A program made the translations under genes and the position numbers. The notes beneath the pieces were generated by a model. The model was not told the DNA's origin. It was given only the letters and a program-made list of their open reading frames with translations, and did no database searches. This document shows, piece after piece, positions 25,572 to 60,431 of a stretch of 64,000 nt of DNA; position 1 is the first letter of the stretch; each line of letters begins with the position of its first letter. The DNA comes from Actinoplanes lobatus (GTDB lineage Bacteria > Actinomycetota > Actinomycetes > Mycobacteriales > Micromonosporaceae): NCBI RefSeq assembly GCF_014205215.1, contig NZ_JACHNC010000001.1, forward strand, positions 2,051,001 to 2,115,000. The letters run 5' to 3'.

Positions 25572-26423
25572 GTGAGGCCGTCAGCCCGGTCGCGTTCGTG
25601 GTCTGCGCCGTCGTCGGCGTTCTCCGGATTCCGGTTTCCGCCGGAGGTGATCGTGGTGGCGGTGCGCTGGTACCTGCGCTACAACCTGTCCTACCGCGAC
25701 GTCGAGGAACTGCTCGCCGAGCGCGGTGTCGAGGTCGATCACGTCACGATGTATCGATGGGTGCAGCGGTTCACGCCGTTGCTGGCTGACGCGGCCCGGT
25801 TCACCCGCCGCGCTCCGGGCGACCGCTGGTTCGTGGATGAAACATATGTCAAGGCCAACGGTGTCTGGCGGTACGTGTACCGGGCTGTCGACCAGCATGG
25901 CCAGGTCATCGACGTGCTGGTGTCAGCCCGCCGGGACGCTGCCGCGGCTCGCCGGTTCTTCACTCGCGCCCTGAAGGCGTTGAAGGTGGTGCCGGTCGAG
26001 GTGGTGACCGACGCCGCCGCCGTCTACCCGGCCGTGCTCGCCGACCTGGTCCCAGCAGCGTGGCATCACGTCGAGCAGTATGCGAACAACCCGGTCGAAG
26101 CCGATCACAGCCAGCTCAAACACCGGCTCCGGCCGATGCGCGGCTTACGGACCGACCGGACCGCCCAGACCGTGATCGCCGGACATGCCTTCGTGCAGAA
26201 CCTGCGCCGCGGACACTACGAGATCGCCACCGAAACCTCACCCCGGCTACACCAATCCACTATGGATCGACAGCGGTCCGACACGCGATCGCCATGCGAT
26301 CACCACGGTCCCACCAGGTGGGATTCTGGGCGGCGAAAACGGGAAGAAGAAACGCCGTGGCCTGCGTTTCCGCAGGTCACGGCGTTGTTCGCCTGGTGCG
26401 CCCGAAGGGACTCGAACCCCTAA
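25572..26423 (+). pseudogene. IS6-family transposase with altered 3' end
   Basis: Residues 20-215 match the IS6/IS26 DDE transposase: RFPPEVIVVAVRWYLRYNLS, YRDVEELLAERG, then D in WFVDETYVK, D in VVTDAAAVYP and E in NNPVEADHSQLK, followed by QNLRRGHYEI. After about residue 225 the protein becomes unrelated (RLHQSTMDRQRSDTRS...), running through the tRNA-Arg terminator and into the tRNA fragment. The right terminal repeat is absent, so the 3' end of the element has been lost by deletion near 26240-26260. The DDE catalytic residues remain, but the protein lacks its normal C-terminus and the element cannot move by itself. Confidence 0.82.
26351..26386 (-). terminator. Terminator of the former tRNA-Arg gene
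   Basis: Perfect 16-bp-class stem of AACGCCGTG-GCCTGCG with its complement, loop TTTC, and a T-rich tract (TTTCTTCTTCC) on the minus strand. It lies 8 nt past the tRNA 3' end, confirming that sequence left of 26394 is original host DNA. Confidence 0.85.
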
Positions 26424-26435
26424 CCTTCTGATCCG
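26394..26435 (-). other. attL: 3' fragment of tRNA-Arg(ACG)
   Basis: Read on the minus strand, this is the 3' 42 nt of a tRNA-Arg: anticodon-loop end and anticodon stem (CGGATCAGA), variable loop, T-arm with GGTTCGAGTCCC, acceptor 3' strand CGGGCGC, discriminator A and encoded CCA (26394-26396). The 5' half is absent: just above 26435 a group II intron begins. A 3' tRNA fragment followed by its own terminator is the usual product of prophage integration at a tRNA gene. With tRNA on the minus strand, the full gene should be found at the right end of the prophage (attR), outside the window. The three missing loop bases (CTA) reappear at 28603-28605. Confidence 0.85.
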
Positions 26436-27032
26436 GTGCGCCGTGAGGCGCTGTTGTTCGAGTGGAGGTGAAAGGCCGCCACCGTCTTCCTGTCGCAGCA
26501 GGTGGGCGTAGCTGAGGGCAGCCTGGTCCGGGTGGTGCCGGATCGGGTGGAAGCGGCCCTGACAAAGCCGGGGCGTGCCAGCACTGCCAGATGGTGCGGG
26601 TCCGGCGAGCGAGACGAAGAGGAGTACGCGAGGAACCGGCGATATTACGTCCCTTAATGGGTTACCGGCTCAAAACCTGGTGGATCAGGGCCGGATGACG
26701 GTGGTTCTCCGAGCGCGTCATGCGGGCTGGGGAGCTTCCGGGCTGGATTGGATTGCTGGTCCGGGAGGCGGTGGGGAAGGTCTGCGGCGTACCCATCGCG
26801 AGGGCCGTCAGGGGCAAAGTCGGGCTCCTCCTTCGACGAACGAGCAGCAGTGAACATGGGAACCACCCGGCCGCGATTCCCGAGCCGTCCGCGTCCAGCG
26901 GGCCGGTCCGGGATAGGCGCACCGACCGTCGAACGGGTCGGGTGGGGCGGAGCCGCCGTAGTACTCCGAGCTGGGGAAAGCCCGGCGCATGGGGAAGGGC
27001 GGCAGCGGTTACGCGAAGGGATGGATGCTGTA

Positions 27033-28490
27033 ATGCCGCAAGACGCGCCGCCGAACGGCGACGCCCGACCGGACGTGAGTCCGGTTGATCGGGTAGCGGA
27101 GATACAGGCCAAACTTCATCGTTGGGCGGCGGCCGATACCGGCCGCCGGTTTGATGACCTGTTCAACCTCGTGCACGACCCGGCGACGCTGATCATGGCG
27201 TTCCACCGGGTCGCTGGTAACCGGGGAGCCCGCACTCCCGGCGTCGACGGCCTGACCGTCGACCACGTCGAGCAGTACGTGGGCGTCCCCGGGTTCCTGA
27301 CCGACCTGCGTGCCCAGTTGAAGGCGGGCACCTTCCGGCCGCTGCCGGTTCGGGAACGCAAGATCCCGAAGCCTGGCGGGTCGGGCAAGGTCCGCAAGCT
27401 CGGTATTCCGACCGTGGCGGACCGGGTCGTGCAGGCGGCGTTGAAGCTGGTGCTGGAACCGATCTTCGAGGCCGGTTTCGAGCCGGTCTCCTACGGGTTC
27501 CGGCCCAAGCGGCGAGCCCAGGACGCGATCGCCGACATCCACCAATTCGGCACCAACGGGTACCGGTGGGTGCTCGACGCGGACATCGAAGCGTGCTTCG
27601 ACTCCATCGACCACACCGCGTTGATGGACCGCGTCCGAGCCAGGGTGAAAGACAAACGCGTGCTGACGCTGGTGAAGGCGTTCCTCAAAGCCGGGATCCT
27701 CACCGAACTCGGTGACCGGCGGAACACCCACACCGGCACGCCGCAGGGCGGCATCCTGTCTCCGCTGCTGGCCAACATCGCTTTGTCCGTGCTCGACGAG
27801 CATTTGACGGCGCCGTGGAAGCCGGGCGGGACAATGTCGACCAGCGGACGCCGTAACTACCGGCGCAGCCGGGGGTTACCGACGTGGCGGCTGGTCCGTT
27901 ACGCCGACGACTTCGTGGTCCTGGTCCACGGAACCCAGGACCACACGGCCGCGTTGCGCGAGGACGTCGCCGCAGTGCTCGCTCCGATGGGTCTGCGCCT
28001 GTCGCCGGCCAAGACGCGGATCGTGCACCTGAGCGACGGGTTCGACTTCCTCGGCTTTCACATCCAGTGGCAGCGCAAGCGAGGCTCGAACCGCTGGCAT
28101 GTGTATACGTTCATCGCCGCCCGGCCGATCCGGTCGCTGAAGGCGAAGATCCGAGCACTGACCCGCAGGACATCACAACAGGACCTGAGATCCGTGCTGA
28201 CCAGGCTCAACCAGGTCACGCACGGCTGGGCCAACTACTTCCGGCACGCCGTCGCCAAGCACACCTTCCACACCCTGGACCGGTTCGCCTGGCAACGGCT
28301 GATCACGATGCTCATGCACCGACACCGCTGGAACTGGAAGGCCGTCCGCAAGCAGTTCACCACGCCGACCGGCAGGTGGCTGCCCATCACCGCGGACGGG
28401 ACCGCGCACCAGCCGATCGCGGCCACCCCGGTGACCCGCTACCGGCAACGCACGATCCCCAACCCTTGGCCCACACCCGACAACGCCTGA
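27033..28490 (+). CDS. ltrA: Group II intron reverse transcriptase/maturase
   Basis: About 485 residues from ATG 27033; ATG 27021 is an alternative but sits directly on the GAAGGG site. Reverse-transcriptase blocks are in order: RTPGVDGLTV, RPLPVRERKIPKPGGSGKVR, FGYGFRPKR-like SYGFRPKRRAQDAI, DADIEACFDSIDH, GTPQGGILSPLLANI and the catalytic YADD at 290-293. The thumb/maturase (GIIM) region follows (GWANYFRHAVAKHTFHTLDRF). No HNH endonuclease domain is visible after it, so mobility probably uses replication-fork DNA rather than double-strand cleavage. It folds with the intron RNA to promote splicing and retrohoming. Confidence 0.93.
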   Translation: MPQDAPPNGDARPDVSPVDRVAEIQAKLHRWAAADTGRRFDDLFNLVHDPATLIMAFHRVAGNRGARTPGVDGLTVDHVEQYVGVPGFLTDLRAQLKAGTFRPLPVRERKIPKPGGSGKVRKLGIPTVADRVVQAALKLVLEPIFEAGFEPVSYGFRPKRRAQDAIADIHQFGTNGYRWVLDADIEACFDSIDHTALMDRVRARVKDKRVLTLVKAFLKAGILTELGDRRNTHTGTPQGGILSPLLANIALSVLDEHLTAPWKPGGTMSTSGRRNYRRSRGLPTWRLVRYADDFVVLVHGTQDHTAALREDVAAVLAPMGLRLSPAKTRIVHLSDGFDFLGFHIQWQRKRGSNRWHVYTFIAARPIRSLKAKIRALTRRTSQQDLRSVLTRLNQVTHGWANYFRHAVAKHTFHTLDRFAWQRLITMLMHRHRWNWKAVRKQFTTPTGRWLPITADGTAHQPIAATPVTRYRQRTIPNPWPTPDNA

Positions 28491-28506
28491 CGACAGCAAC
28501 CGTGGA

Positions 28507-28540
28507 GAGCCCGTTGCGCGGAGACGCGCACGGCGGGTTC
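28507..28540 (+). ncRNA. Group II intron domain V
   Basis: 34-nt hairpin beginning GAGC and ending GGTTC with an internal GAGA-type loop, the catalytic core of group II introns. It lies 16 nt after the maturase stop codon. Confidence 0.88.
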
Positions 28541-28602
28541 GGCGAGCGGCCTGGAGAAACGGACCAGCGGCAACGCGGCACCGCGCTCCAGGCCGACTCA
28601 AC

Positions 28603-28783
28603 TAGGTGATCTTCGATATAGATACCCAAGGCCACCGAAGATCTCCGATGCCCCCTGACCTGCGGATGTGCCCCCACAGACCCCTCCGTGACCTTGGGTA
28701 TCCCTACCGGTTTCAGCTACCGTTTCCGCTACCACGCACAGGCCCAGCGGCGGCCAAATTCTCGGCCCTACCGCCCCCCATCC
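28603..28783. other. Phage side of attL with inverted and direct repeats
   Basis: No gene is supported here. Next to the core lie an 8-bp inverted repeat (GATCTTCG 28608-28615 with CGAAGATC 28636-28643), an 11-bp perfect inverted repeat (28621-28631 with 28692-28702) and short direct repeats of CTACC between about 28703 and 28733. Such short repeats are what integrase/excisionase arm sites look like; the assignment is inference. Confidence 0.45.
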
Positions 28784-29044
28784 TCACGCAGCCTTGCCCC
28801 GCTGTCCGTCCATGTAGCCACGGAGATAGACAACGGCCTCATTGCCGGCGAGGTGAAAGAGCGGTGGCACGCCGTCCGTGTCACACGTTGCAGCGTCACG
28901 CATGCCGGCTGCCTTGCTCGCAGCACCTCGCTCAGCGCGAGCCTTATGCGCCGACCACAGCAACGCCAGCCCGGCAGCCGCCCCAGCGGCGACAGCCGCG
29001 CTGAGGATTATGCGAGACACCAAGATTTCGCTACGCGCGCTCAC
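28784..29044 (-). CDS. Small membrane protein near attL
   Basis: 86 residues from GTG 29044, which has GGGAGG 6 nt upstream; the frame also extends to 29146 but with no site. One membrane helix (ILSAAVAAGAAAGLALLWSA) follows a short N-terminus. The C-terminal half is soluble with HLAGNEAVVYLRGYMDG. No family recognised. An SOS-box-like sequence lies about 95 nt upstream, so expression could follow DNA damage. It is separated from the accessory operon by a hairpin terminator at 29217-29263. Confidence 0.65.
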   Translation of the reverse strand: MSARSEILVSRIILSAAVAAGAAAGLALLWSAHKARAERGAASKAAGMRDAATCDTDGVPPLFHLAGNEAVVYLRGYMDGQRGKAA

Positions 29045-29137
29045 GAACTTCCTCCCCGTGCGACCGACGCACCACGTCACATGTTGATCATGATACGTGA
29101 CCGCGTGCTGATCTTGCTGCACTTTAAGCTCGATATT

Positions 29138-29151
29138 AGAACACATGTTCG
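29138..29151. promoter_or_regulatory. Possible LexA (SOS) box
   Basis: AGAACACATGTTCG fits the actinobacterial SOS box CGAACRNRYGTTYG with one mismatch at the first base. It lies upstream of the small membrane protein gene, in an AT-rich patch. Confidence 0.45.
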
Positions 29152-29216
29152 AGCAAGAAGCTCGCTAGGTCATCGGAGATTCACGGAGAGTCACAGTTCA
29201 ATGAACGTTCGAGAGA

Positions 29217-29263
29217 CCCGGCTCGGCAGGAACCACGGGGGGCCAAATCCCCGCCGAGCCGGG
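29217..29263 (-). terminator. Hairpin at the end of the accessory operon
   Basis: Perfect 11-bp stem CCCGGCTCGGC (29217-29227) with its complement (29253-29263), with an inner G/C stem. It is placed 75 nt after the last gene of the minus-strand operon. Confidence 0.6.
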
Positions 29264-29337
29264 TGGTCAGGCAACGTCGGCACCTAGTTCCTCAGCCGCT
29301 TAGCGGCAACAGGCGACTCCAAGACCGGACGTCTCAG

Positions 29338-29586
29338 TCATAGTCGCTCCGTGACAACTCGGGCCTTCCACTCGCCCCGGCGGTGTCGCTCCAGTTGCAG
29401 CAGGAACCCAACCGCCTGTGCCTCGTTCTGGTGTGTCCCGATCGTGCGCTCAGGTGGCGCGTCGGGTAGCCATGACTGCCACCATCCGTTCTGATGGCCG
29501 GGGATCCGGGCGACGTAACCGATGAACGACTCGCGCTCGCCCGGGACGGGTGTCCGGTGCATCATCGTTGCCCTTCGCGATGCCAT
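29338..29586 (-). CDS. Small soluble protein of unknown function
   Basis: 82 residues from ATG 29586, two nucleotides after the stop codon of the APH-like gene, so translational coupling is likely; the frame also reads further upstream. Contains MMHRTPVPGERESFIGYVARIP, then GWWQSWLPDAPPERTIGTHQ, and a helical end (AVGFLLQLERHRRGEWKARVV). No recognisable domain. It is the last gene of the seven-gene operon. Confidence 0.55.
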   Translation of the reverse strand: MASRRATMMHRTPVPGERESFIGYVARIPGHQNGWWQSWLPDAPPERTIGTHQNEAQAVGFLLQLERHRRGEWKARVVTERL

Positions 29587-29588
29587 CG

Positions 29589-30374
29589 TTAGGCGTTCTC
29601 TGACGTACGGCGGCAGGTCGACCACTGGCCGGTCCAGTCCGCTAGGTCGCGCATCCACCCTGCGGCGCTCTGTCGCGACTTGAGCGCCCACTTTTCGGCA
29701 TTCTTCGTCGCGAAGTCGTCAAGGACCGAGGGGTTTACCGTGCCCCATGCCGACTGCCGGGCCAGCCACTTCTCAGCCTGTTCCGCCGTGTGGCCACTAC
29801 CGATCAGCCACGGGACGAGCATGGCCAGTTCGACCCACGGCGCGGCCTTGGTCGCCATCGCCCAGTCGACGATCCGCAGGCCGCGCGGCGTGACGATAAG
29901 GTTGGCCGGGCCAAGATCGGTGTGAATGAGAGTGTCGCCGTCCATCGCCGGGTGCTCGAACCCGAGCCGCCCTTTCGGACCGAACAGCCCCACATCCGGC
30001 GCACGCGTGTTGCCCAGCGTCGCAAGCGCTTCGTCGAGAAGATCCAGGTCGGGACTTTCCGGAGACAGGTCAGCGTGTGGGCCACTGCAATGCTCGAACC
30101 CTACGACCAGCCAGCCGGCCTCCTCGAAGTGCCACTTGACCGCGGGCGAGTGAGACCCGCTGACGGCCTCACTCACCCGCAGCTCGAAGCGCAGTGACCG
30201 GACGCCGAAGTCGATGTGGGCAGCCTTGACGAACACCTGCCCGTTCGCCCCGGTGACGGTGACGGCTATTTCCGCGTGATCACCGGTCACGGCCGGGACG
30301 GCGTGGGATCCGCCGACCCGGTCGGCTACCTCCTTCGTTACAGCTTCGGGCAACGCGGTCCAGTCAATGCGCAT
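29589..30374 (-). CDS. APH-like phosphotransferase
   Basis: 261 residues. The catalytic core of the aminoglycoside phosphotransferase / choline-kinase fold is clear: LIHTDLGPANLIV (Brenner-type H-x-D-x4-N near 150) and RIVDWAMA (metal-binding D) with the linker in normal spacing. The N-terminal lobe carries FVKAAHIDF with a likely ATP-binding Lys. The family phosphorylates small-molecule hydroxyls, some being antibiotic-resistance enzymes. In this operon it more likely acts on an unknown metabolite or modified product. It is followed by a small protein overlapped by the operon spacing. Confidence 0.8.
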   Translation of the reverse strand: MRIDWTALPEAVTKEVADRVGGSHAVPAVTGDHAEIAVTVTGANGQVFVKAAHIDFGVRSLRFELRVSEAVSGSHSPAVKWHFEEAGWLVVGFEHCSGPHADLSPESPDLDLLDEALATLGNTRAPDVGLFGPKGRLGFEHPAMDGDTLIHTDLGPANLIVTPRGLRIVDWAMATKAAPWVELAMLVPWLIGSGHTAEQAEKWLARQSAWGTVNPSVLDDFATKNAEKWALKSRQSAAGWMRDLADWTGQWSTCRRTSENA

Positions 30375-30390
30375 CGATCAGTTAGCCCTT

Positions 30391-30867
30391 TCAGATGCCC
30401 GGATTCGGCGGGCAGCAGGACTTCGCCTCGCCGTCCCAGAACTCGGGGTCGATGTAGTAGCCGGTCGCCTGGAGAGCCCGGCGGGTGTACTCCATGGAGG
30501 AGCCGTCCGCCATGCCTTCGGTCAGGATCGGCACGTGGTGCACGAAGCCTCCCGCGATCTGCTCGCAGGCGGCGGCGTACGGCTCGGTGTGTTGCAGCGA
30601 CGCATGCCAGGCCGCGTCAACCGGCTCGGTCGGGACGACGCGGTAGGACCGGCCGCCGGGCAGCAGCCGGCCGAAGTCGGGGTCGTGCTGCGAGTCGGCG
30701 TGCGCCTTGAGCATGAGCAGCATCTGTCCGACGGCCCGCCGGGCGTAGGTCTTGGTGACCTCCTGCACGGCGGCGAAGTGTAGGGCGAGCTTGTCGAAGG
30801 TCACCGGGTCGACGAGGGCTTGCGGGTCCTTGTCGGCCTGGACCGGCAGTTCGGTCGTGAGGGTCAC
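30391..30867 (-). CDS. GRDP-like (glycine-rich-domain / DUF1399-type) protein
   Basis: 158 residues from GTG 30867, which has AAGGAGGAG directly upstream at good spacing; a longer frame to 31023 runs back into the upstream gene. The conserved segment PTEPVDAAWHASLQHTEPYA, followed by EQIAGGFVHHVPIL, matches the GRDP/DUF1399 pattern (D-x-x-WH-x-x-x-x-T-x-x-Y ... C/G-x-x-x-HH). The C-terminus ends with Cys-Cys-Pro-Pro-Asn-Pro. The biochemical role is not known. Position directly after the JmjC/cupin gene suggests a shared pathway. Confidence 0.65.
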   Translation of the reverse strand: MTLTTELPVQADKDPQALVDPVTFDKLALHFAAVQEVTKTYARRAVGQMLLMLKAHADSQHDPDFGRLLPGGRSYRVVPTEPVDAAWHASLQHTEPYAAACEQIAGGFVHHVPILTEGMADGSSMEYTRRALQATGYYIDPEFWDGEAKSCCPPNPGI

Positions 30868-30925
30868 GACTCCTCCTTGGGGGTGTATGGATCGCCGACG
30901 CCTAATGCGCCGGTGAAATCCCGGA

Positions 30926-31876
30926 TCAACGGGTCGATTGGTGCTGGTTGATCTGACTCGGCGCGTGGGAGATGTAGTCCACGTTCGGTTCGGTGCGTGC
31001 GGCCTGGAGCAGCTCGACGGCAAGGGCGCTGACGTCGGCGCCGGCCAGCCAGTCTGTGAGCAGGTCTCGCGCCTCGGCGATTTGTTCGGCGAAGGCGACG
31101 GGGTCGACGACGCTGCTGGGCGGGATCACACGCCGTAGCGGGGTCGAGGTGAGCGCGGCCTGGGCCAGCTTTCCGGCGATCCAGTAGCCGGTGCGCTCGC
31201 GGGCCACGAAGGTCACGTGGACGCTTTCCTCGGTCTGGTTACGCGCGTGCGGGTTGTGCATCCAGCCGCGCGGGAGCACCAAAATCTGACCAGGACCGAG
31301 CTCGAACTCGAAATCGGGTCGCATCGACTTCATGCGATCGAGGACGTCGCTGCCCGGCGAGGTGTTGGACGCGAAGTGCTCGCGGTGCGGTTCCTCGACC
31401 CCGGGCTCCCAGATCTGCCAGGTCTTGTACCCGGTGAGTTGGTAGACGGAACCCATGTTCTGGTCCCAGTGGTGATGCAGACCTTGCCCGCCCGCCGGGG
31501 TGACGAAGCCGGTGGCGTACGTGCCGTATCCGGTCTCGTTCTGGATCGCCGCGCAGATTGCGTGCACCTCGGGACACCAGCGGTGGAGGTTGCGCAGTTG
31601 GATGGTGTAGCCCCGGCCGCGCCACTTCGCGACCTTGCCGGGGTCGAGGTAGCCGTCCGTCGTGTAGGCCCGGGAATGCAGCGCTGTCCCGTCCTTGATC
31701 ACGATGAGCTGCTCAGCGGGTGCGGTACCGGTGTCGAGATAACTGTTGATGAGTTCCGCGTTGACGATGCTGGGAAGGCGGCTGCCGTCGGGCGGTGTGT
31801 GAAGCGCCGGCTTCGCCGGCCAGGCGGCCATCATGTCGCTGACCGTGGCCTCGTCGAACAGCATCGATAGGGACAT
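30926..31876 (-). CDS. JmjC/cupin-type Fe(II)/2-oxoglutarate oxygenase-like protein
   Basis: 316 residues, ATG 31876 with GGAGG 5 nt upstream. The cupin_4/JmjC metal motif HHHWDQN supplies H136-x-D138, and GWMHNPH supplies the distal His (H207 or H210); Lys151 in YKTWQIW could hold 2-oxoglutarate. The double-stranded beta-helix is preceded by an N-terminal helical region and followed by a helical C-terminal domain (SVVDPVAFAEQIAEARDLLTDWL). Family members hydroxylate ribosomal or other proteins. The target here is unknown; the neighbours (GRDP-like, APH-like) are not ribosomal. Confidence 0.75.
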   Translation of the reverse strand: MSLSMLFDEATVSDMMAAWPAKPALHTPPDGSRLPSIVNAELINSYLDTGTAPAEQLIVIKDGTALHSRAYTTDGYLDPGKVAKWRGRGYTIQLRNLHRWCPEVHAICAAIQNETGYGTYATGFVTPAGGQGLHHHWDQNMGSVYQLTGYKTWQIWEPGVEEPHREHFASNTSPGSDVLDRMKSMRPDFEFELGPGQILVLPRGWMHNPHARNQTEESVHVTFVARERTGYWIAGKLAQAALTSTPLRRVIPPSSVVDPVAFAEQIAEARDLLTDWLAGADVSALAVELLQAARTEPNVDYISHAPSQINQHQSTR

Positions 31877-31902
31877 TCCATCCTCCGGGGGTGTGGGAGT
31901 CG

Positions 31903-32160
31903 TTAGTTCCGGGGCGGGATGCTCTGCTTCCGATTGGCAGTCCTGGCATTCGCCGCTGTGACGCTGTCGAGCACGAGATCTTCGACCGCGACCTCCATGT
32001 CGTCAGGATCTAGCTCCAGGACAGCGCGGCCCTCGTGCAGGTTGATCCAGCCGATCTTGACCAATGTGCTGCCGACTCTGACCACGACCGGTACGTCGAA
32101 GGCGTCGAGCAGCAGGCCGAGCAGCCCGAGCCCGCTCTTCGACGGCGATTCCTTGGTCAT
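31903..32160 (-). CDS. Small protein of unknown function, possible oxygenase partner
   Basis: 85 residues, ATG 32160 overlapping the stop of the preceding gene (ATGA). It has a beta-barrel-like core (VPVVVRVGSTLVKIGWINLH, EGRAVLELDPDDMEV) and a basic, Asn/Arg/Pro C-terminal tail (NARTANRKQSIPPRN). It lies 26 nt before the JmjC/cupin gene. It could be the substrate or a partner of the oxygenase, but nothing in the sequence proves this. Confidence 0.55.
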   Translation of the reverse strand: MTKESPSKSGLGLLGLLLDAFDVPVVVRVGSTLVKIGWINLHEGRAVLELDPDDMEVAVEDLVLDSVTAANARTANRKQSIPPRN

Positions 32161-32411
32161 GCCGCAAGCCCCGGCGCGTCAATCCAACCGAGGAACCGCT
32201 CGTAGAGGTCGGGCGGCGTTCTGCGTCCCGCGGCCCAGTCGTCGACCGCCTCGATCATGTAGGACCCGAGCAAGACCACCAGTCCGCGAGGGAACCTCTG
32301 ATACTGCTCGGCGAGCTCAACCTTCGCGACTGCGCAGGGCCACGGCCAGCCGCAAACCTTGCAGTTCCAAGTAGGGCGCTCGCCCTGATGATCCGTACGC
32401 GGAACGAGCAT
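32157..32411 (-). CDS. Small Cys-motif protein (CKVCGWPWPC)
   Basis: 84 residues from ATG 32411 with GAGGAGG upstream; a longer frame exists. The N-terminus carries C-x2-C-G-W-P-W-P-C, followed by a helical body (VELAEQYQRFPRGLVVLLGSYMIEAVDDWAAGRR, TPPDLYERFLGWI). This resembles a group of small actinobacterial proteins found next to XRE regulators, whose function is unknown. The Cys cluster may bind Zn. It overlaps both neighbours (TGATG and ATGA). Confidence 0.7.
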   Translation of the reverse strand: MLVPRTDHQGERPTWNCKVCGWPWPCAVAKVELAEQYQRFPRGLVVLLGSYMIEAVDDWAAGRRTPPDLYERFLGWIDAPGLAA

Positions 32412-32668
32412 CACGCGCCTCCTCGCGCACGTCGCTCTTGCGCCGGAGTGAGCGAGCCAGCCCGGCCGACCTGGTACAGCGGTCTGGTGTTCCCATTCCA
32501 AGCCGGAGTAGCCAACGGAGGTTCGCTAGCCGATGTCTGAACTCGGTGCTCCTCGCGCTGCCGGGCCGCAGCCATCCATTCCTCGATGCACGGCCACGGC
32601 AGGCCACATACGCAGCGCTGCCGACGCAAGGGCCACCACCACCTGCGCTTCCTCTTGCGATGCTGCAT
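32411..32668 (-). CDS. Small Cys-motif protein (CVCGLPWPC)
   Basis: 85 residues, first gene of the minus-strand operon. A basic, Trp-rich start (RKRKRRWWWPLRRQR) is followed by C-V-C-G-L-P-W-P-C, the same motif type as the next gene, so the two are distant duplicates. The C-terminus is unstructured. Its stop overlaps the start of the next gene by one base. Function unknown; may be a Zn-binding partner in the operon. Confidence 0.6.
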   Translation of the reverse strand: MQHRKRKRRWWWPLRRQRCVCGLPWPCIEEWMAAARQREEHRVQTSASEPPLATPAWNGNTRPLYQVGRAGSLTPAQERRARGGA

Positions 32669-32947
32669 TGCGCCTCCTACGGTTGCCAGCCGGTAGGGTC
32701 GCGCCGGGGAGTTGAGCGCAGCGGCGAGAGTGTGACCGACGGCGTTGCGGACAGTTTCAACGTGGCGTGCGGTGGTGAGGCATCGCTTGATGCCTCACCT
32801 GTCACGCCTTGGCGACGGCAGTACGACGGGCGACGATCTTGTGACGCCCTGTTGTCAGTCTTGAGGGGACTCGGCTGGCGTTCCAGGTGTTGCCAGTTGG
32901 CAACTCTTGCCTTGACAACACCTGGCGTGTGATCCGGATGATGGGCT
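32669..32947. promoter_or_regulatory. Divergent promoter region with nested palindromes
   Basis: Between divergent start sites lie three perfect palindromes: 10 bp at 32774-32783 with 32790-32799 (GGTGAGGCAT...ATGCCTCACC); 10 bp at 32883-32892 with 32916-32925 (CCAGGTGTTG...CAACACCTGG); and GTTGCCA-GT-TGGCAAC at 32889-32904 nested inside. TTGACA at 32912-32917 is a good -35 for the plus-strand XRE gene, overlapping the second palindrome; the -10 is weak. Binding by the XRE protein here would control both directions. Confidence 0.6.
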
Positions 32948-34222
32948 GTGGCCGAAAGCGAATCGTTCAAGGACGCGTTGCGCCGAATGCGAGGGGCGCG
33001 TGGCCTCTCGCTTCGAGAGTTGTCTCGCATCGCACCGCTTGACCCGGGCCACTTGAGCAAGATCGAGAATGGGCATCGCACTCCGACTGCCGACGTCGCC
33101 AAGGCCCTCGATCGAGCCCTCCAGGCCAGGGGCGAACTGGTAACACTTGCTCACCTCGAAAGGTCAGCACGTGCACGGCAAGCGGTACCGTTTGATCCCA
33201 TGAGACGCCGAAGTCTTCTCGCGTTGGGGGTAACGGCAACCGCCATCGCTAGCGCTGGGCCTGCAAACAAACCTCACGGGCCAAAGATCGGTATCGCGGA
33301 CGCCAGGGAGCTCCAAGACACCGCCGCATGGCTATATGGCCTTGACTATCAGCATGGCGGAGCGACCCTTTGGCGCGCAGCTAAGGCCGCAGCACAAGAC
33401 GGCCATGACATGCTGGAAAATGGCATATATGGCGAGGTTGTTGAACGGCAGATCATTAAGGGAACAAGCCGGCTTCAAATGTGTGCGGGATGGCTAGCGT
33501 TCGACGCTGGGAGGCACGATTTAGCTCGATCATGCTACACGGAGGCACTTGCCCTAGCTCGCCAAGTCGGCGACGCAGAGGTTGAGATTCACGCTCTTTC
33601 AAATCTAGCCTTTCAGGCCAACGTACTTGGCCGCCCACGCGAGGCAATGCGTTTCGTTGAGGGCGCGATACGCGCCGAGTCGGCGCCACATGACCAAGCT
33701 CGCCTTCCGGCAATTCCCCACCTCCGGCGCTCGGTTGCTTTGTCCCTTAGCAATGACAGAACCGGGCACGAAAAGGCAATGGGGGCAGCAAGAAAGATCC
33801 TTGATAGGGACCACGACAAGCCTGCCGAGGAGTGGTGTTCCTTTCTCAGCCCGGCGGAGCTTGACGGCGTCGAAGGGACCTGTCTAGTTGAGCTGGGACA
33901 ACCGAAGCGAGCCGGAATTCTACTAGAATGTGCCATTCGAGCGCTGGATCAGAACTATGCCCGCAATAGGGCCTTGTATCGCGCGAGATTGGCACGCGCG
34001 CGTCTTGACTCCAAACTTGTTGACGGGGCAGTAGAGGCGGCGGACGCCGCCCTAGACGATCTCGATAACCAGGTTGCAAGCTGGCGGGTTGAAAGCGAGC
34101 TAGCTGCCGTTGCGACGCGGTTGGCAAGGTTTCCGCACGATGGCCCAGCCAAAGATTTCTTGGATCGATACCACTCCAGGAGTCAAGAGTTCGATCCAGT
34201 TCGACGAGAAAGGCGGCCATGA
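32948..34222 (+). CDS. XRE-family regulator with TPR-like C-terminus
   Basis: 424 residues, GTG start near the proposed promoter. The N-terminal HTH_3 is clear (FKDALRRMRGARGLSLRELSRIAPLDPGHLSKIENGHRTPTADVAKAL as separate helices). A short linker with an RRRSLLALGVTATAIASAG segment, hydrophobic and preceded by arginines, follows; then about 300 residues of helical TPR-like repeats. Such proteins are common in actinomycetes, often next to a gene they control. GC is lower than in the late phage genes, which indicates separate origin. It overlaps the GNAT gene by 4 nt. Confidence 0.85.
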   Translation: MAESESFKDALRRMRGARGLSLRELSRIAPLDPGHLSKIENGHRTPTADVAKALDRALQARGELVTLAHLERSARARQAVPFDPMRRRSLLALGVTATAIASAGPANKPHGPKIGIADARELQDTAAWLYGLDYQHGGATLWRAAKAAAQDGHDMLENGIYGEVVERQIIKGTSRLQMCAGWLAFDAGRHDLARSCYTEALALARQVGDAEVEIHALSNLAFQANVLGRPREAMRFVEGAIRAESAPHDQARLPAIPHLRRSVALSLSNDRTGHEKAMGAARKILDRDHDKPAEEWCSFLSPAELDGVEGTCLVELGQPKRAGILLECAIRALDQNYARNRALYRARLARARLDSKLVDGAVEAADAALDDLDNQVASWRVESELAAVATRLARFPHDGPAKDFLDRYHSRSQEFDPVRRERRP

Positions 34223-34776
34223 GCTCATCCGCAGAAATAGCCATATCAACCCTGCAATCTCCGGATTTGGAGAAGCATCGGGACCCCTTAATCGACGTCT
34301 ACGAAGAGGTCTATCGCGAGAAACTTGAAGACCCGTTCTTTTCTACATCGAGGTACTGGGAGAGACTTCAAGGCTACGCATCCCGACAGGGTTTCGCCGT
34401 CTCAATTGGCGAGGTTGACAACGCCCCCATCGGCTATGCACTCGGTTACACGCTCCCCGCCGGAAGCGGATGGTGGCGAGGGCTCAAATCTGACGTCAGC
34501 GAAGACGACCTTCGTGAGGACGGACACCGAACGTTTGCGTTGACAGAAATAATGGTACGAGAGTCTTGGCGACGTCGCGGCTTCGCGCGTCGACTACACG
34601 ACGACCTGTTAACGAGCCGACAAGAGGAGCGGGCAACCCTTTTGGTCCTCCCGGACAACACCCCCGCAACAACGGCATATGCGTCCTGGGGATGGCATAA
34701 GCTAAGCGAGCTGAAGCCTTTTGACGACTCGCCAACCTACGACGCGATGATCATTTCACTGCCGATCGCGCGCTAA
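34219..34776 (+). CDS. GNAT acetyltransferase
   Basis: 185 residues, ATG overlapping the XRE stop (ATGA). The GNAT fold shows the acetyl-CoA-binding ...ALTEIMVRESWRRRGFARRLHDDLL (Q/R-x-x-G-x-G/A site) and a C-terminal LVLPDNTPATTAYASWGWHKL motif. Substrates of the family are small amines, protein N-termini or antibiotics. It is made together with the XRE regulator. Codon use and GC resemble the regulator rather than the late phage genes. Confidence 0.85.
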   Translation: MSSSAEIAISTLQSPDLEKHRDPLIDVYEEVYREKLEDPFFSTSRYWERLQGYASRQGFAVSIGEVDNAPIGYALGYTLPAGSGWWRGLKSDVSEDDLREDGHRTFALTEIMVRESWRRRGFARRLHDDLLTSRQEERATLLVLPDNTPATTAYASWGWHKLSELKPFDDSPTYDAMIISLPIAR

Positions 34777-34806
34777 GCATCGACGACCGCGGCGGGATAA
34801 ATGCAA

Positions 34807-34842
34807 AAAGGCGGCCGGCCCTGTAGAGGGCCGGCCGCCTTT
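34807..34842. terminator. Bidirectional terminator
   Basis: Perfect 16-bp stem (34807-34822 with 34827-34842) with GTAG loop and flanking A/T runs. It separates the GNAT gene from the convergent phage gene at 34855. Confidence 0.85.
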
Positions 34843-34854
34843 GCGTAGTTGTGG

Positions 34855-35196
34855 TTACAGCTTATAAACGGGCTGCCCGGTGGGCACCCCGAGCGAGAGC
34901 AGGAATCGGCCGACCGCCCGAGCGAACCGGGCGGGGCCGCCGTCGCCGGTGACCTGTTCGAGTGCGCGGCCGGTCTCGTACACGAGGTAGCCGAGCGTGA
35001 GGCCGAGCGCGAGGGTGATTTCGGTGGCGGTGGGTCGATAGCTGGTCGCCGATTCGACGGCGTTGAGGACCGGCGCGCCGTGGATGAGGGCGAGCGCGGC
35101 GAGGTGGCCGACGGCCATGGGCCAGAGGGTACGCAGTCGGGCGGCGAGCCGGTCGGTGATCACGCCGGACGGCTGCGGGAAGGCGGGTAGGGACAC
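34855..35196 (-). CDS. Putative holin-like membrane protein, copy A
   Basis: 113 residues. Two to three hydrophobic segments (LWPMAVGHLAALALIHGAPVL, EITLALGLTLGYLVYETGRAL) and a basic C-terminus fit a small holin-like lysis protein, supported by its position near the endolysin. It is nearly identical to copy B at 36428: of 113 residues about ten differ, mainly in the C-terminal tail. This copy is intact. Confidence 0.65.
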   Translation of the reverse strand: MSLPAFPQPSGVITDRLAARLRTLWPMAVGHLAALALIHGAPVLNAVESATSYRPTATEITLALGLTLGYLVYETGRALEQVTGDGGPARFARAVGRFLLSLGVPTGQPVYKL

Positions 35197-35665
35197 GGGC
35201 GGTTCTCCTCGTTGTGTGGGGCTGGCCGGTCAGTCCGGTGGGCGGTGAGTTGCTGGCCGGCTTGGGTGAGTTGGTTGGTGCGTTCGTCGAGCTGGGCGCG
35301 GACGCGAGCGAGTTCGGTGAGCGCGGTGTCTCGTTCGGCGATGACTCGGGCGAGTTCGGCGGTGCGGTTGCGTAGTGCTTCGTCGAGCGCCGCGACCTTG
35401 GTTTCGAGTGCGCTCACTTGGCCGTCAGCCGGGACACTTCGGCTTCCAGCCGTTCGACGATGCGTGAGTAGATCCGTTCGGTGATTTCGTCGGCTTGGGC
35501 CTCGTTGAGCTCCGCCCCGGCCTTACGTTGGCGGCGCCCGACCAGCACGCCGGCGAGCGCGAGCGCGGCCGGCCGACGGTGCTGATCAGGTCGCCGCTCC
35601 GACCTGTACGGGTTGACGGTGAGGGCGATGTTTCGCGGCGGCGAGTGCGCCGTCGTCGACGCCAC
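35160..35665 (-). pseudogene. Decayed copy of the coiled-coil lysis-module protein
   Basis: Compared with the intact gene at 36801, this copy has lost its start codon (CTC-CG in place of CTCAT), has one base deleted near 35571 (GGCCGGCC for GGCCGGTCC) and one near 35416, splitting the frame at AAGTGAGC, and no longer ends at the same stop. The remaining pieces still read as ERIYSRIVERLEAEVSRLTA and ETKVAALDEALRNRTAELA. A GTGA restart at the second shift could give a fragment, but three separate lesions argue for a non-functional gene. Confidence 0.75.
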
Positions 35666-35789
35666 CGATCCATCCGCTGTCAGTCCACGCCTGCCGTGTG
35701 TTCATGCCGTTCGACGTCCCACCTAATGGGGCGCCCGAAGCTGCAGAAATGCAGTACGACTTGACGCGCTAATGAAGGGCCTGGCTATG

Positions 35790-36320
35790 TCTTACGCTCC
35801 ACCGCAAGACCCCACCCACCAATACCCTGCACCCCCGCCGCAACCTTACGGATACGTTCCTGCGAAAGCCCCATCAGCGGTTCTCGTCTTCGTTATCACA
35901 TTCTTTTTCGGCATCTTTGGCCTGATTCCGGCAATCCTGAGGCACAACCGTGCCCGGCAAATTGGTGCGCCGGTAACCAGCTACTGGCTTGCGTTCGGCA
36001 TTACATTCGGCTGCCAAATATTGTTGGTGATGATGATGAGCGTGGCCGGCGCGTCCTCGCAGGGTGGGGGAGGTGGATCTTCCGCATCCGTCGCCCCCGA
36101 AAAGATCACTCTGAGCGAGTTCGAAAGCATTTCCCCTGGGATGACCGAAGACGAGGTTGAGCAGATCGTCGGGTCGCCGGGCGCGCTGCGGAGCAATTCA
36201 GAGGGCTTCCTTGGAAGTGATTACGTGACCCGCACTTACGATGGTGGATTCATGGCAAGCGCTACCGTTGAATTCAAGAACGGAGAGGTAGTACGGACCC
36301 ATCAACTGGGATTGCAGTAG
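35790..36320 (+). CDS. Membrane protein with BLIP/SmpA-like outer domain
   Basis: 176 residues from ATG 35790 with GAAGGG upstream; an ATG at 35772 lies too near its own site. A Pro/Tyr-rich N-terminus (YAPPQDPTHQYPAPPPQPYGY) precedes two membrane helices (AVLVFVITFFFGIFGLIPAIL and WLAFGITFGCQILLVMMMSV), a Gly/Ser linker, and a domain with ISPGMTEDEVEQIVGSPG and ATVEFKNGEVV, a SmpA/BLIP-like (DUF3862-type) fold. It lies between the two copies of the lysis cassette, on the opposite strand and at lower GC: a likely lysogenic-conversion gene. Function unknown. Confidence 0.7.
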   Translation, partial: SYAPPQDPTHQYPAPPPQPYGYVPAKAPSAVLVFVITFFFGIFGLIPAILRHNRARQIGAPVTSYWLAFGITFGCQILLVMMMSVAGASSQGGGGGSSASVAPEKITLSEFESISPGMTEDEVEQIVGSPGALRSNSEGFLGSDYVTRTYDGGFMASATVEFKNGEVVRTHQLGLQ

Positions 36321-36383
36321 AAGCATCTTGCCTAAAGTTCCGACGTTGCTTGCTGGGTCTCATTTCGCCTCGCAAGCACAGAG

Positions 36384-36415
36384 AAGCGGCCGACACCTTC
36401 CGGGGTCGGCCGCTT
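36384..36415. terminator. Hairpin terminator
   Basis: 11-bp stem AAGCGGCCGAC with its complement, extended by CC/GG across one mismatch and followed by T-rich sequence. It lies between the convergent membrane-protein gene and copy B of the holin-like gene. Confidence 0.65.
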
Positions 36416-36427
36416 TCGGGATTGGGT

Positions 36428-36769
36428 TCAGCGCTGGTATGCGGGCCGTCCGGTAGGTACGCCGAGCGAGAGCAGAAATCGGCCGGCTACCCGAGCGAAC
36501 CGGGCGGGGCCGCCGTCGCCGGTGACCTGTTCGAGCGCGCGGCCGGTCTCGTACACGAGGTAGCCGAGCGTCAGGCCGAGCGCGAGGGTGATCTCGGTGG
36601 CGGTGGGTCGGTAGCCGGTCGCCGATTCGACGGCGTTGAGGACCGGCGCGCCGTGGATGAGGGCGAGCGCGGCGAGGTGGCCGACGACCATGGGCCAGAG
36701 GGTACGCAGTCGGGCGGCGAGCCGGTCGGTGATCACGCCGGACGGCTGCGGGAAGGCGGGTAGGGACAC
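36428..36769 (-). CDS. Putative holin-like membrane protein, copy B
   Basis: 113 residues, near-identical to copy A (34855). Membrane segments LWPMVVGHLAALALIHGAPVL and EITLALGLTLGYLVYETGRAL. It follows the coiled-coil gene and the amidase on the same strand in the usual lysis-module order, so this is likely the original copy. In phages with amidase endolysins a small membrane protein at this place releases the endolysin; the holin role is inferred from position and size. Confidence 0.7.
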   Translation of the reverse strand: MSLPAFPQPSGVITDRLAARLRTLWPMVVGHLAALALIHGAPVLNAVESATGYRPTATEITLALGLTLGYLVYETGRALEQVTGDGGPARFARVAGRFLLSLGVPTGRPAYQR

Positions 36770-36800
36770 GGGTGGTTCTCCTTGTCAGGGGGTTGGCCGG

Positions 36801-37187
36801 TCATGTCCGGCTCGCGGCGAGTTGCTGGCGGGCTTGGGTGAGTTGGTCGGTGCGCTCGTCGAGCTGGGCGCGTACGCGGGCGAGCTCGGCGACTGCGGCG
36901 TCGCGTTCGCCGCGGACTGCCAGCAGTTCGGCGGTGCGGTTGCGTAGCGCCTCATCGAGCGCGGCGACCTTGGTTTCGAGGCTGCCGACCTGGGCAGTCA
37001 GCCGGGCGACTTCCGCCTCAAGCCGCTCGACGATGCGGCCGTAGATGCGTTCGGTGATCTCGTCGGCCTGCGCTTCGCTGAGTTCCGCGCCGGCGCGGCG
37101 TTGTCGACGCCCGACCAGCACGCCGGCCAGTGCGCCGGCGAGCGCGAGCGCGGCCGGTCCGACGGTGCTGATCAGGTCGCCGCTCAT
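36801..37187 (-). CDS. Membrane-anchored coiled-coil lysis-module protein
   Basis: 128 residues. An N-terminal membrane helix (VGPAALALAGALAGVLVG) followed by RRQRR and then an uninterrupted coiled coil to the end (ITERIYGRIVERLEAEVARL, ETKVAALDEALRNRTAELLA, ARVRAQLDERTDQLTQA). It overlaps the amidase stop by 4 nt (ATGA at 37184-37187). Such N-anchored coiled coils resemble spanin-like or holin-partner proteins, but actinobacteria have no outer membrane, so a role in wall or holin control is more likely. This is the intact copy of a duplicated gene. Confidence 0.7.
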   Translation of the reverse strand: MSGDLISTVGPAALALAGALAGVLVGRRQRRAGAELSEAQADEITERIYGRIVERLEAEVARLTAQVGSLETKVAALDEALRNRTAELLAVRGERDAAVAELARVRAQLDERTDQLTQARQQLAASRT

Positions 37188-38017
37188 TTGACGTCGAGCA
37201 GCACGGACCAGGTGACGGGGCCGATGACCCGGTCGACGGTGATTCGTGCCTTGCGCTGGGCGGTGGCGACGGCGGCCGCGGTGTTGTCGCCGTAGTCGCC
37301 GTCTTCGGTGAGCTTGTAGCCCATGACGTTAAGCAGGGCCTGAGCGCGTTTGACGTCGGCACCGGCGGATCCATGGCGGAGGGTGGGCAGAGCGTTCACG
37401 ATCTTCTCCGTGGTGGTGGGTGCCGGCTTTGTCGGCGTGGTGGGGGTGGTCGGGTGGCCGAGCTTGGCAAGTGCGTCGTTGACGGCCTTGAACAGGCGGT
37501 CCCACGGGAAGTGAGGGCCGGGGTCGGTGTGCGTGGTGTGGCCCCATGCCCGGCGTGCGTCGTCGTGGGCGTAGAACGCTTTGACCGTGGGGTTGCGGCG
37601 CATCTCGGCGACGCTGGCCCGCCTCACCTGGAAGCTGGAAAGGTCCGGGTCGTTGCGGATGATCCACGCCAGCGCCGCGCCGAGCCGATCCCATGCGACG
37701 TTGGCGAGCCACCAGGAGCGCGGCTTGCCGTTGGCGCCGACGATCTCGACCGCGTAGGCGTTCTCGTTGCCTTCACGTGATCCGACGTGGCCCGCCTTAG
37801 CGGTGAGTTCGAGTGACTGGGTGACGCTGTCGGCATCGGCGTACAGGTGGGCGCTGACGCCGTCGGTGCGTCGGTGGGCGTAGTTCGCTTCGGCGGTGTC
37901 GGAGGCGTTGTTGCTGGTGTTGTGGATGCAGATGGCGTACTTGCGGCCGTCGGAGTCGTGGTAGTCGTTGCGGCCTTCGATGAACGGCACGCCGGGGATG
38001 CGTTTCGGGTTGGCCAT
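37184..38017 (-). CDS. Endolysin: N-acetylmuramoyl-L-alanine amidase with peptidoglycan-binding domain
   Basis: 277 residues. N-terminal Amidase_2 (PGRP) domain with zinc ligands His32 (AICIHNTSNN) and the pair in GHTTHTDPGPHFPWDRL near 159-169; the HTDPGPHFPW motif is diagnostic. A Thr/Pro linker (PTTPTTPTKPAPTTTEK) leads to a PG_binding_1 domain (LRHGSAGADVKRAQALLNV...DGDYGDNTAAAV). It cuts the amide bond between muramic acid and the stem peptide. It starts the lysis cassette and lies downstream of the tail genes, as in many actinophages. Confidence 0.95.
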   Translation of the reverse strand: MANPKRIPGVPFIEGRNDYHDSDGRKYAICIHNTSNNASDTAEANYAHRRTDGVSAHLYADADSVTQSLELTAKAGHVGSREGNENAYAVEIVGANGKPRSWWLANVAWDRLGAALAWIIRNDPDLSSFQVRRASVAEMRRNPTVKAFYAHDDARRAWGHTTHTDPGPHFPWDRLFKAVNDALAKLGHPTTPTTPTKPAPTTTEKIVNALPTLRHGSAGADVKRAQALLNVMGYKLTEDGDYGDNTAAAVATAQRKARITVDRVIGPVTWSVLLDVK

Positions 38018-38084
38018 GGGTGCGGTACTTCCATCCTCAAGGAATTCCTACCGAAAGATAGGAATAGATGGGCGTAAGGAACCT

Positions 38085-38108
38085 CCCCACCCGGGCGTCC
38101 GGGTGGGG
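38085..38108 (-). terminator. GC hairpin after the last tail gene
   Basis: 10-bp perfect stem CCCCACCCGG/CCGGGTGGGG with a GCGT loop, just after the stop of the tail-associated gene. A second small stem (ATTCCTA...TAGGAAT) lies at about 38044-38065. Weak T tract, so possibly a regulatory or partial terminator. Confidence 0.45.
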
Positions 38109-38125
38109 TGGCGGTGGAGCGAGGG

Positions 38126-38605
38126 TTAGGCGAGCCGGTATGCCTTGATCAGTGAGCCGGCGCTGACGTACGTGACGTTGGCGGTGTCCGCGGCGGCCTG
38201 TCCCCAGACGAGCGCAATGTTGCCGGCGGTCGCGCCGATCGTGATCTGGGCGGTCTCGATGATCTGCTGTAGCAGGGTGTTGTTGTTGCGGGGCAGGCCG
38301 TACGTGATGGCGGTGCCCAAGGCATGCACACCGAATCGGGACGTTGATATGTCGGCGTCGGTCTGCGCTGCGGTGGTGCTGCCCGGGCCGAGACACCGAC
38401 GGAGACCGGTGGCACCGGTCGGGGCTCCCCAACTAGTGCGGACTTTGGCGGTGTTGGTGCCGGCCACCAAGAGGTGCATCTCGATCCACCACTTGCTGTT
38501 GGCCGGTACCGGGAGCACGAGATCGGGGTCGGCGCTCATGGTGGTGGTGCCGCGGCCGGCCGCGTCGGTCTTCTCGATGAACACCGGGAGCATGGCTTGC
38601 AACAT
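38126..38605 (-). CDS. Tail-associated protein
   Basis: 159 residues from ATG 38605; an upstream in-frame CTG at 38659 with a GAGAGG site could add 18 residues, as in TYAYPPTPAGEEVTEAM. A beta-rich body with NSKWWIEMHLLVAGTNTAKVR, FGVHALGTAITYGL and ITIGATAGNIALVWGQAAA is typical for virion surface or receptor-binding proteins that follow the large tail protein. No precise family recognised. Confidence 0.7.
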   Translation of the reverse strand: MLQAMLPVFIEKTDAAGRGTTTMSADPDLVLPVPANSKWWIEMHLLVAGTNTAKVRTSWGAPTGATGLRRCLGPGSTTAAQTDADISTSRFGVHALGTAITYGLPRNNNTLLQQIIETAQITIGATAGNIALVWGQAAADTANVTYVSAGSLIKAYRLA

Positions 38606-38672
38606 GGCCTCGGTGACTTCCTCGCCGGCCGGGGTCGGCGGGTACGCGTAGGTGGTCAGTGCGGCCTCTCTT

Positions 38673-41915: not shown

Positions 41916-41916
41916 G

Positions 41917-44574: not shown

Positions 44575-44584
44575 CCCCGCGTGT

Positions 44585-45237: not shown

Positions 45238-45250
45238 CGCGGGACCTCTT

Positions 45251-45736: not shown

Positions 45737-45739
45737 CGG

Positions 45740-46419: not shown

Positions 46420-46431
46420 GCGGGGGCCTCC

Positions 46432-47639: not shown

Positions 47640-47651
47640 GCGCGCCCCCTT

Positions 47652-51292: not shown

Positions 51293-51396
51293 CGCTTGAC
51301 AGGCTGGCCCATGAAGCGTATTTAACCTGGTCCGCACCAGTAAGCTGTCCGGCGAACGGCCCGCCGTACGCGGACCGTTTGCCGTCGACGGCCCGG

Positions 51397-55320: not shown

Positions 55321-55323
55321 CGG

Positions 55324-57441: not shown

Positions 57442-57460
57442 CGATTCGCCTCCCGTCGGA

Positions 57461-60414: not shown

Positions 60415-60431
60415 GGTGCACCCCCGCAACG

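What the first reader, a model, noticed from the sequence alone, without database searches (positions are those of the whole stretch)
26394..28605. A group II intron splits a prophage att core inside a tRNA-Arg anticodon loop
The minus strand at 26394-26435 is the 3' part of a tRNA-Arg. A group II intron begins exactly at 26436 (GTGCG) and ends at 28602 (AC). Joining the flanks gives CCG-TAG, the complement of the missing anticodon-loop bases. The intron therefore landed inside the 45-nt att core, antisense to the tRNA. It may have entered attL after integration, or ridden in on the phage attP. It would affect excision unless it is spliced or tolerated, and the 2.2-kb gap between core halves should hinder integrase.
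Basis: partly seen in the sequence, partly recalled or inferred. Interest (0 to 1): 0.85.

Follow-up and report, generated by a model that had tools for sequence, protein, structure and literature searches.

The report
Intron homing into phage integration scars
A self-copying RNA element (a group II intron) in soil actinobacteria lands at one exact base of leftover arginine-tRNA gene pieces of the kind that integrating viruses and islands create, and here it cuts one end of a resident virus's insertion site in two.

Summary
A 2167-nt group II intron (26436-28602, + strand) splits a 45-nt tRNA-Arg(ACG) 3' fragment between anticodon bases 34 and 35, antisense to the tRNA. The intact tRNA-Arg lies about 40 kb downstream, beyond a prophage whose integrase adjoins it, so the split fragment is the prophage's other att core.

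It is no isolated accident. Eight full-length copies (at least 89.5% identical) in seven of 354 family genomes sit at this same base, in eight different contexts; one is an identical second copy 5.2 Mb away in this genome. None is in an intact tRNA gene. The seven copies with a readable intron protein form one clade (100/99). The intron's EBS1 and EBS2 guides pair with the site, and these pairings covary across related introns. Best reading: a retrohoming specialist whose guides mimic tRNA-Arg. Insertion in the tRNA gene itself should be lethal (inferred), so only duplicated cores survive as hosts. Riding in on attP is disfavoured. That it blocks prophage excision is likely but unproven. Only the window copy has a whole element shown around it. 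New variant of a known kind; nine full-text searches on group II introns found no report of this specificity.

The parts
26255..26391 (.). Outer flank next to the core, homologous (78% over 139 nt) to the same place beside the second intron copy; probably an attP arm of an earlier integrated element
   Evidence: the identity as an att arm is inferred
26394..26435 (-). 3' part of tRNA-Arg(ACG), 42 nt of the att core; exon 1 of the intron (IBS2 = 26421-26426, IBS1 = 26430-26435)
26436..28602 (+). Group II intron, 2167 nt
   Evidence: RF00029; seven other copies with the same ends
26659..26664 (+). EBS2 (GGGTTA), pairs with exon TAACCT (five Watson-Crick pairs, one G-U); near-copy of tRNA-Arg AGGTTA
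   Evidence: covariation z 10.2 for exon -14..-9 and 9.6 for -15..-10 over 24 introns
26749..26754 (+). EBS1 (TGGATT), pairs with exon GATCCG (four Watson-Crick pairs, two G-U); near-copy of tRNA-Arg CGGATC
   Evidence: covariation z 6.8 at alignment position 26750, one base off by a local gap
27033..28490 (+). Intron-encoded reverse transcriptase/maturase, 485 aa, with YADD, no endonuclease domain found; start codon chosen by conservation of MPQD in other copies (longer in-frame starts exist)
   Evidence: PF00078, PF08388; TIGR04416, 373.7 bits
28505..28602 (+). Intron domains V and VI
28603..28605 (-). Last 3 nt (TAG on +) of the 45-nt att core, tRNA positions 32-34
28606..64000 (.). Prophage (continues outside the window to about 68694): endolysin 37184-38017, tape measure 41917-44574, major head 51397-52929, portal 55324-57441, terminase 57461-59194; integrase at L012:3047-4648 (about 67046-68647) next to the intact tRNA
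   Evidence: the exact left end is inferred from the core

Best explanation
A mobile group II intron lineage of Micromonosporaceae retrohomes into the antisense strand of tRNA-Arg(ACG) sequence. Its EBS1 and EBS2 guides nearly copy two stretches of the tRNA (3' side of the anticodon loop and stem; variable region), so it inserts between anticodon positions 34 and 35. The one functional tRNA gene carries the same target but should not tolerate the insertion, because an antisense intron cannot be spliced out of the tRNA. The intron is therefore seen only in duplicated 3' tRNA fragments of the kind that prophages and islands leave when they integrate at this tRNA. In the window it entered the left att core of a roughly 40-kb prophage after integration, inside the presumed integrase crossover region, and probably locks the prophage in place. 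Shown: exact site, recurrence, clade, guide pairing and covariation, intact partner tRNA, prophage with integrase. Inferred: retrohoming in life, lethality in the tRNA gene, order of events, att origin of the six cores in other genomes and of the second copy's core, block of excision.
For: Same base in 8 of 8 full copies from 7 genomes; 10 junctions in 9 of 354 genomes; no intact tRNA at any of the eight sites; intact tRNA-Arg(acg) elsewhere in 14 of 14 genomes checked. Two identical copies (2167 of 2167 nt) in cores differing by one base with flanks at most 78% alike. EBS1/IBS1 z 6.8 and EBS2/IBS2 z 10.2 against at most about 3.6 for other non-overlapping listed positions. Clade support 100/99. 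Prophage and integrase between split core and intact tRNA. Spare cores are common: 33 of 67 genus genomes hold two or more exact 17-nt targets. dN/dS 0.16-0.39 among copies with readable protein.
Against: Only the window copy has a whole element with integrase and partner tRNA shown. At the six other-genome loci no integrase was found among 10 flanking ORFs scanned, and tblastn found only an integrase-like stretch of 83 aa beside the G162 core. The second copy in this genome also has no integrase beside it. In G302 only about 18 nt next to the insertion match the tRNA cleanly. Outer flanks of G302 and G162 are not homologous to the others. EBS1 leaves exon base -1 unpaired in 4 of 8 copies. 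G169, G185 and G260 keep spare unsplit cores, so homing is not saturating. One of eight copies has a broken protein frame. Splicing, mobility and excision were not observed.
Confidence: 0.8

Rival explanations
1. The intron rode in on the phage: it was already in attP and was carried into the chromosome at integration.
For: The split core is one end of the prophage, and an intron in attP would end at such a core.
Against: The guides match tRNA letters, not phage letters. The eight copies sit beside unrelated exon-2 sides. A scan of the viral contigs for the split junction gave 5 hits, all unrelated sequence without the intron. An intron inside the presumed crossover region should block integration (inferred).
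Confidence: 0.08
2. The host fragments are ordinary tRNA pseudogene pieces or island relics rather than active att cores; the intron simply homes to tRNA-Arg sequence wherever a spare copy exists, and the link to integration is incidental.
For: No integrase beside most of the other occupied cores; two copies lie about 5 Mb from the intact tRNA; the G302 core is partly degenerate.
Against: In the window a prophage with integrase lies between core and tRNA. Six of 15 unsplit non-tRNA sites stop matching the tRNA exactly after TAG, as att cores with an anticodon-loop crossover should. Six of eight occupied cores share a 122-154-nt outer flank in two homology groups.
Confidence: 0.12
3. The second identical copy arose by gene conversion or recombination between cores, not by retrohoming.
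For: The two copies are identical over 2167 nt, and tRNA-core homology could start an exchange.
Against: Cores differ by one base and flanks diverge; conversion would still need a first homing event and does not explain copies in six other genomes.
Confidence: 0.15
4. The intron is a harmless passenger and the prophage still excises, or the prophage was already dead before the insertion.
For: No excision data; a transposase gene abuts the outer flank, so there is some local decay.
Against: Integrase, terminase, portal, head, tape-measure and endolysin frames are long and match their families. The anticodon loop is a known crossover subsite (PMC4383910, passage).
Confidence: 0.3

Closest known systems
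RmInt1/RmInt2-type endonuclease-less mobile group II introns (PMC5894124, passages seen)
   Same: RT and maturase without endonuclease, homing to mobile DNA (insertion sequences there)
   Different: Target here is a tRNA-derived att core, not an IS; IEP class was not determined, so membership in class D is not claimed
Group IIC-attC introns (PMC4424553, section 8 and passages)
   Same: Choice of a recombination site (integron attC) as target
   Different: Here the site is read by EBS1 and EBS2 base pairing to a fixed sequence; the crossover belongs to a phage-type integrase, not an integron
Genomic islands and prophages at tRNA genes, anticodon-centred site (PMC4383910, abstract and passages)
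   Same: Regenerated tRNA at one end, displaced 3' tRNA fragment at the other, tyrosine integrase
   Different: The displaced fragment is interrupted by an intron
Group II introns in phage genomes (PMC12350094, passages and second half of section 6)
   Same: Group II introns associated with temperate phages; the authors set aside one intron (NC_030940) lying just before a prophage integration site
   Different: Their reported introns lie within phage genomes; no att-core target was described in the parts read
Chloroplast trnK intron (PMC4424553, passage)
   Same: Group II intron in a tRNA gene
   Different: That one lies within an essential tRNA gene and must be spliced; this one is antisense and in spare fragments

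Membership tests
Mobile group II intron | GUGYG 5' end and AY 3' end | tested here: met
   GTGCG at 26436 and AC at 28602
Mobile group II intron | Catalytic domain V with VI | tested here: met
   RF00029 above gathering score
Mobile group II intron | Encoded RT plus maturase (X) protein | tested here: met
   PF00078, PF08388; TIGR04416 above cut-off
Mobile group II intron | EBS-IBS exon recognition | tested here: met
   Covariation over 24 introns
Mobile group II intron | Self-splicing and retrohoming activity | not testable with these tools
   Needs RNA and a homing assay
RmInt1-like class D introns | IEP falls in class D of the IEP phylogeny | not tested
   No reference set of classes was used
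RmInt1-like class D introns | No endonuclease domain | tested here: met
   Only RVT_1 and GIIM at E 1e-3
Group IIC(-attC) introns | Targets a stem-loop rather than a homing sequence read by EBS2 as well as EBS1 (absence of EBS2 in IIC is recalled) | tested here: not met
   EBS2-IBS2 is the strongest covarying pairing
Prophage/island integrated at a tRNA gene | Intact tRNA at one end, 3' fragment at the other | tested here: met
Prophage/island integrated at a tRNA gene | Tyrosine integrase next to one end | tested here: met
   PF00589, phrog_1
Prophage/island integrated at a tRNA gene | Crossover within the anticodon loop for this integrase | tested here: inconclusive
   Core stops at tRNA position 32, as 6 of 15 unsplit non-tRNA sites do; no recombination data

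The most novel reading that the evidence does not exclude
A group II intron lineage has become a specialist of phage and island recombination sites. Its guides copy a tRNA, so each integration at that tRNA makes a new safe target, while the tRNA gene itself is protected only by lethality. By splitting the strand-exchange region the intron permanently domesticates the element: a retroelement that locks prophages into bacterial chromosomes across a family.
Probability: 0.4. Interest if true: 0.78.

Novelty: new variant of a known kind. Interest (0 to 1): 0.62.

Why it matters
A 2015 review names three target specificities for bacterial group II introns: homing sites, terminator motifs and integron attC sites (PMC4424553, passage). 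This lineage's homing site is tRNA sequence carried by att cores of phages and islands. It ties together intron target choice, tRNA-gene integration and prophage domestication. It also makes one question testable: how an element whose target lies in an essential, single-copy gene persists by living only in copies of that gene made by other parasites.

Tried and rejected
Chance insertion: rejected, since 8 of 8 full copies share the base. IIC-type stem-loop targeting: rejected because EBS2 pairing is strongly supported. Carriage on phage attP: the five viral-contig hits to the split-junction pattern were unrelated sequence without the intron. Comparison with a sibling that has the same prophage at the tRNA: not possible. 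The first roughly 750 nt on the prophage side matched no other genus genome; the rest matched loci in 32 other genomes of 67, with at most four candidates scored per genome. The outer side 22000-25500 matched 8 other genomes of 67. Rfam at E 1 gave no further group II domain. Plasmid records: 167 hold a match to the intron; the 20 rows listed begin at query position 39 or later, so none of those 20 includes the core; 147 were not listed. dnaA positions were fetched to look for replication-strand bias; by hand, assuming circular chromosomes, I read three of four copies in near-complete genomes as on the leading-strand template and one on the lagging, so nothing is claimed. The nearest relatives with other targets (G074 two copies, G268, G015) were looked at for att arms: short repeats are visible around three of the four sites, but no att site or integrase was shown. 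My first base-by-base comparison of the two copies was two bases out of register; replace it. Papers: searches on group II introns showed no paper on tRNA att cores in their listings (some listings were capped); one search was on integrase crossovers. Most subscription papers are not held.

Limits of counts. The 354 genomes are those held for the family. One search took 14 genomes: the seven with full copies and seven with partial ones; G051 and G148, also with partial copies, were not included. It listed 31 places; ARAGORN saw 30 of them. Flanks of 20 of 34 related introns, chosen by long open frames, were scanned. Of 40 introns given to the tree script, 35 entered the tree; L026, L032, L046, L106 and L115 were dropped for short or motif-less frames, and G260 was not given because its frame is broken. 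One search used 24 rows, the eight tRNA-core copies collapsed to one.
Full report
WHAT IS THERE. On the + strand, 26394-26435 is the antisense of the last 42 nt of tRNA-Arg, CCA included. At 26436 a group II intron begins with GTGCG; it ends with AC at 28602. Rfam RF00029 (domains V-VI) matches 28505-28602 at 42.7 bits, above its gathering score, ending at that base. The next three bases, TAG, continue the tRNA, then homology stops. Counted along the intact gene, the split lies between position 34, the first anticodon base, and position 35. The intron encodes an RT/maturase, 485 aa from the start conserved in other copies (longer in-frame starts exist), with RVT_1 and GIIM domains and no endonuclease domain at E 1e-3. 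Its closest solved relative by sequence is the GsI-IIC RT; that does not assign a class.

THE PARTNER. The window is G000:C1:2051001-2115000. With up to one mismatch, the uninterrupted 17-nt target occurs once in this genome, inside the intact tRNA-Arg(acg) gene at 2119695-2119770, next to a tRNA-Ser. Between the split core and that tRNA lie about 40 kb with endolysin, tape measure, major head, portal and terminase genes, and a tyrosine integrase ending 47 bp before the tRNA. A regenerated tRNA at one end and a displaced 3' fragment at the other is the layout of an element integrated at a tRNA gene (PMC4383910, abstract and passages). The terminase has no phage match above 60% identity (1528 records, best listed 38%).

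RECURRENCE. Of 354 genomes held for the family, nine contain the core/intron junction, ten junctions in all. Eight are full-length copies at 89.5% identity or more: two in this genome, one each in G302, G185, G214, G169, G162 and G260. Two are 5' fragments, in G303 and G047. L022 (Actinoplanes siamensis) and G052 share intron flanks and G052 is in the window's genus, so the window is probably from an Actinoplanes (inference). In all eight full copies the insertion is at the same base, exon 2 begins TAG, and ARAGORN sees no tRNA-Arg at the site. Of ten fragments that reach the intron's 3' end, five are followed directly by TAG and two more if one or two mismatched end bases are counted; three are followed by TGG or TAA (by eye). 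An intact tRNA-Arg(acg) is present in 14 of 14 genomes checked. The 2-kb exon-2 sides are unrelated except for two short matches (140 nt G260-G302; 69 nt G162-G169). The 122-154 nt just outside the core on the exon-1 side are homologous in two groups (window with the second copy; G185, G214, G260, G169), which fits conserved attP arms; G302 and G162 show none.

WEAK POINTS OF THE ATT READING. Only the window copy is shown with a whole element. None of ten flanking ORFs at the six other-genome loci matched an integrase, nor did the two larger ORFs beside the second copy. tblastn with the prophage integrase found an 83-aa stretch beside the G162 core. Integrase-like sequence does lie beside several unsplit cores or intact tRNAs, for example L175, L193 and L203. 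The G302 core matches the tRNA cleanly over only about 18 nt.

MOBILITY. The two copies here are identical over 2167 nt, yet their cores differ by one base and their outer flanks are 78% alike. That is expected of a recent homing event and awkward for segmental duplication. Among copies with readable protein dN/dS (NG86, longest frames) is 0.16-0.39; pairs with the broken G260 frame give 0.39-0.63.

TARGETING. I aligned the first 600 nt of 31 introns and asked which intron positions pair with their own exon better than with other introns' exons, with the tRNA-core copies collapsed to one (24 rows). Two places stand out: 26750 for exon -6 to -1 (z 6.8) and 26658 for exon -14 to -9 (z 10.2). Other non-overlapping positions listed reach about 3.6. 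These are EBS1 and EBS2. In the window TGGATT (26749-26754) pairs with GATCCG and GGGTTA (26659-26664) with TAACCT, G-U pairs included; both are near-copies of tRNA-Arg sense sequence. Elsewhere EBS1 is TGGATC (G302, G185) or AGGATC (G214, G169, G162, G260), the latter leaving exon base -1 unpaired. The seven copies with readable protein form one clade (100/99) in a 35-row tree. Relatives use other targets: of 20 flanking pieces scanned, 13 matched transposase or integrase domains (three of these under the curated cut-off), one DUF4158 (transposase-linked, recalled), one DUF222, and five nothing. Two are tyrosine recombinase genes, L105 and L106. So the wider family lives largely in mobile DNA and the tRNA-core branch is one specialisation.

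WHY CORES AND NOT THE GENE. The gene holds the same target. An antisense intron cannot be spliced from the tRNA, so insertion in the sole gene should be lethal; this is inference. Spare targets are common: 33 of 67 genomes of the genus hold two or more exact copies of the 17-nt target, up to seven in one. Here both non-tRNA cores found are occupied. In G302, G214 and G162 no spare unsplit target remains at one mismatch, while G169, G185 and G260 keep some.

CONSEQUENCE. Of 15 unsplit non-tRNA sites, six stop matching the tRNA exactly after TAG. Of 31 viral-contig stretches, nine stop 3-8 nt past the insertion point, two of them exactly after TAG. This fits a crossover in the anticodon loop, one of the known subsites. 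The intron therefore probably splits the strand-exchange region of one att site and locks the prophage. This step is not shown. The same reasoning speaks against the intron having sat in attP before integration; a scan of viral contigs found no split core.

STANDING. It is a group II intron by the features that could be tested. It works like endonuclease-less introns that home to mobile DNA, such as RmInt1 (PMC5894124, passages), but its IEP class was not determined. It resembles IIC-attC introns only in choosing a recombination site (PMC4424553, section 8 and passages). One phage survey set aside an intron lying just before a prophage integration site (PMC12350094, passage), which may be a hint of the same thing elsewhere. 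Nine full-text searches on group II introns showed no report of this specificity; the library lacks most subscription papers.

Noticed in passing
window 48946-51292: An Eco57I-type methylase (PF07669) next to a XhoI-type restriction endonuclease (PF04555) inside the prophage, beside the major head gene.
   Followed up: no
window 59578-60654: A prophage gene matching a phage phosphoadenosine phosphosulfate reductase family (phrog_424).
   Followed up: no
G048 contig 45, 148133-408011: Seven same-strand exact copies of the 17-nt tRNA-Arg target within 260 kb, six of them within about 77 kb: apparently a long tandem array of integrated elements.
   Followed up: no
L105, L106, L109: Related introns lie antisense in tyrosine recombinase genes next to the HxLRH motif (motif read by eye, name recalled; PF00589 hits for L105, just under cut-off, and L106; the L109 piece had no Pfam hit).
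   Followed up: partly
L242, L243, L244: Nearest relatives of the tRNA-core clade (82-83% identical) sit among short direct repeats (CTGACA or CTAACA types) in stretches without a named gene; nature of the site unknown.
   Followed up: partly
window 29600-30600: This stretch near the prophage's left end has homologues at dispersed loci in 32 other genus genomes of 67; in G057 and G037 they lie within about 0.7 kb of a tRNA-Arg target.
   Followed up: no
window 25572-26423: An IS6-type transposase frame (PF13610) runs up into the tRNA core, suggesting a decayed insertion at the outer flank.
   Followed up: no
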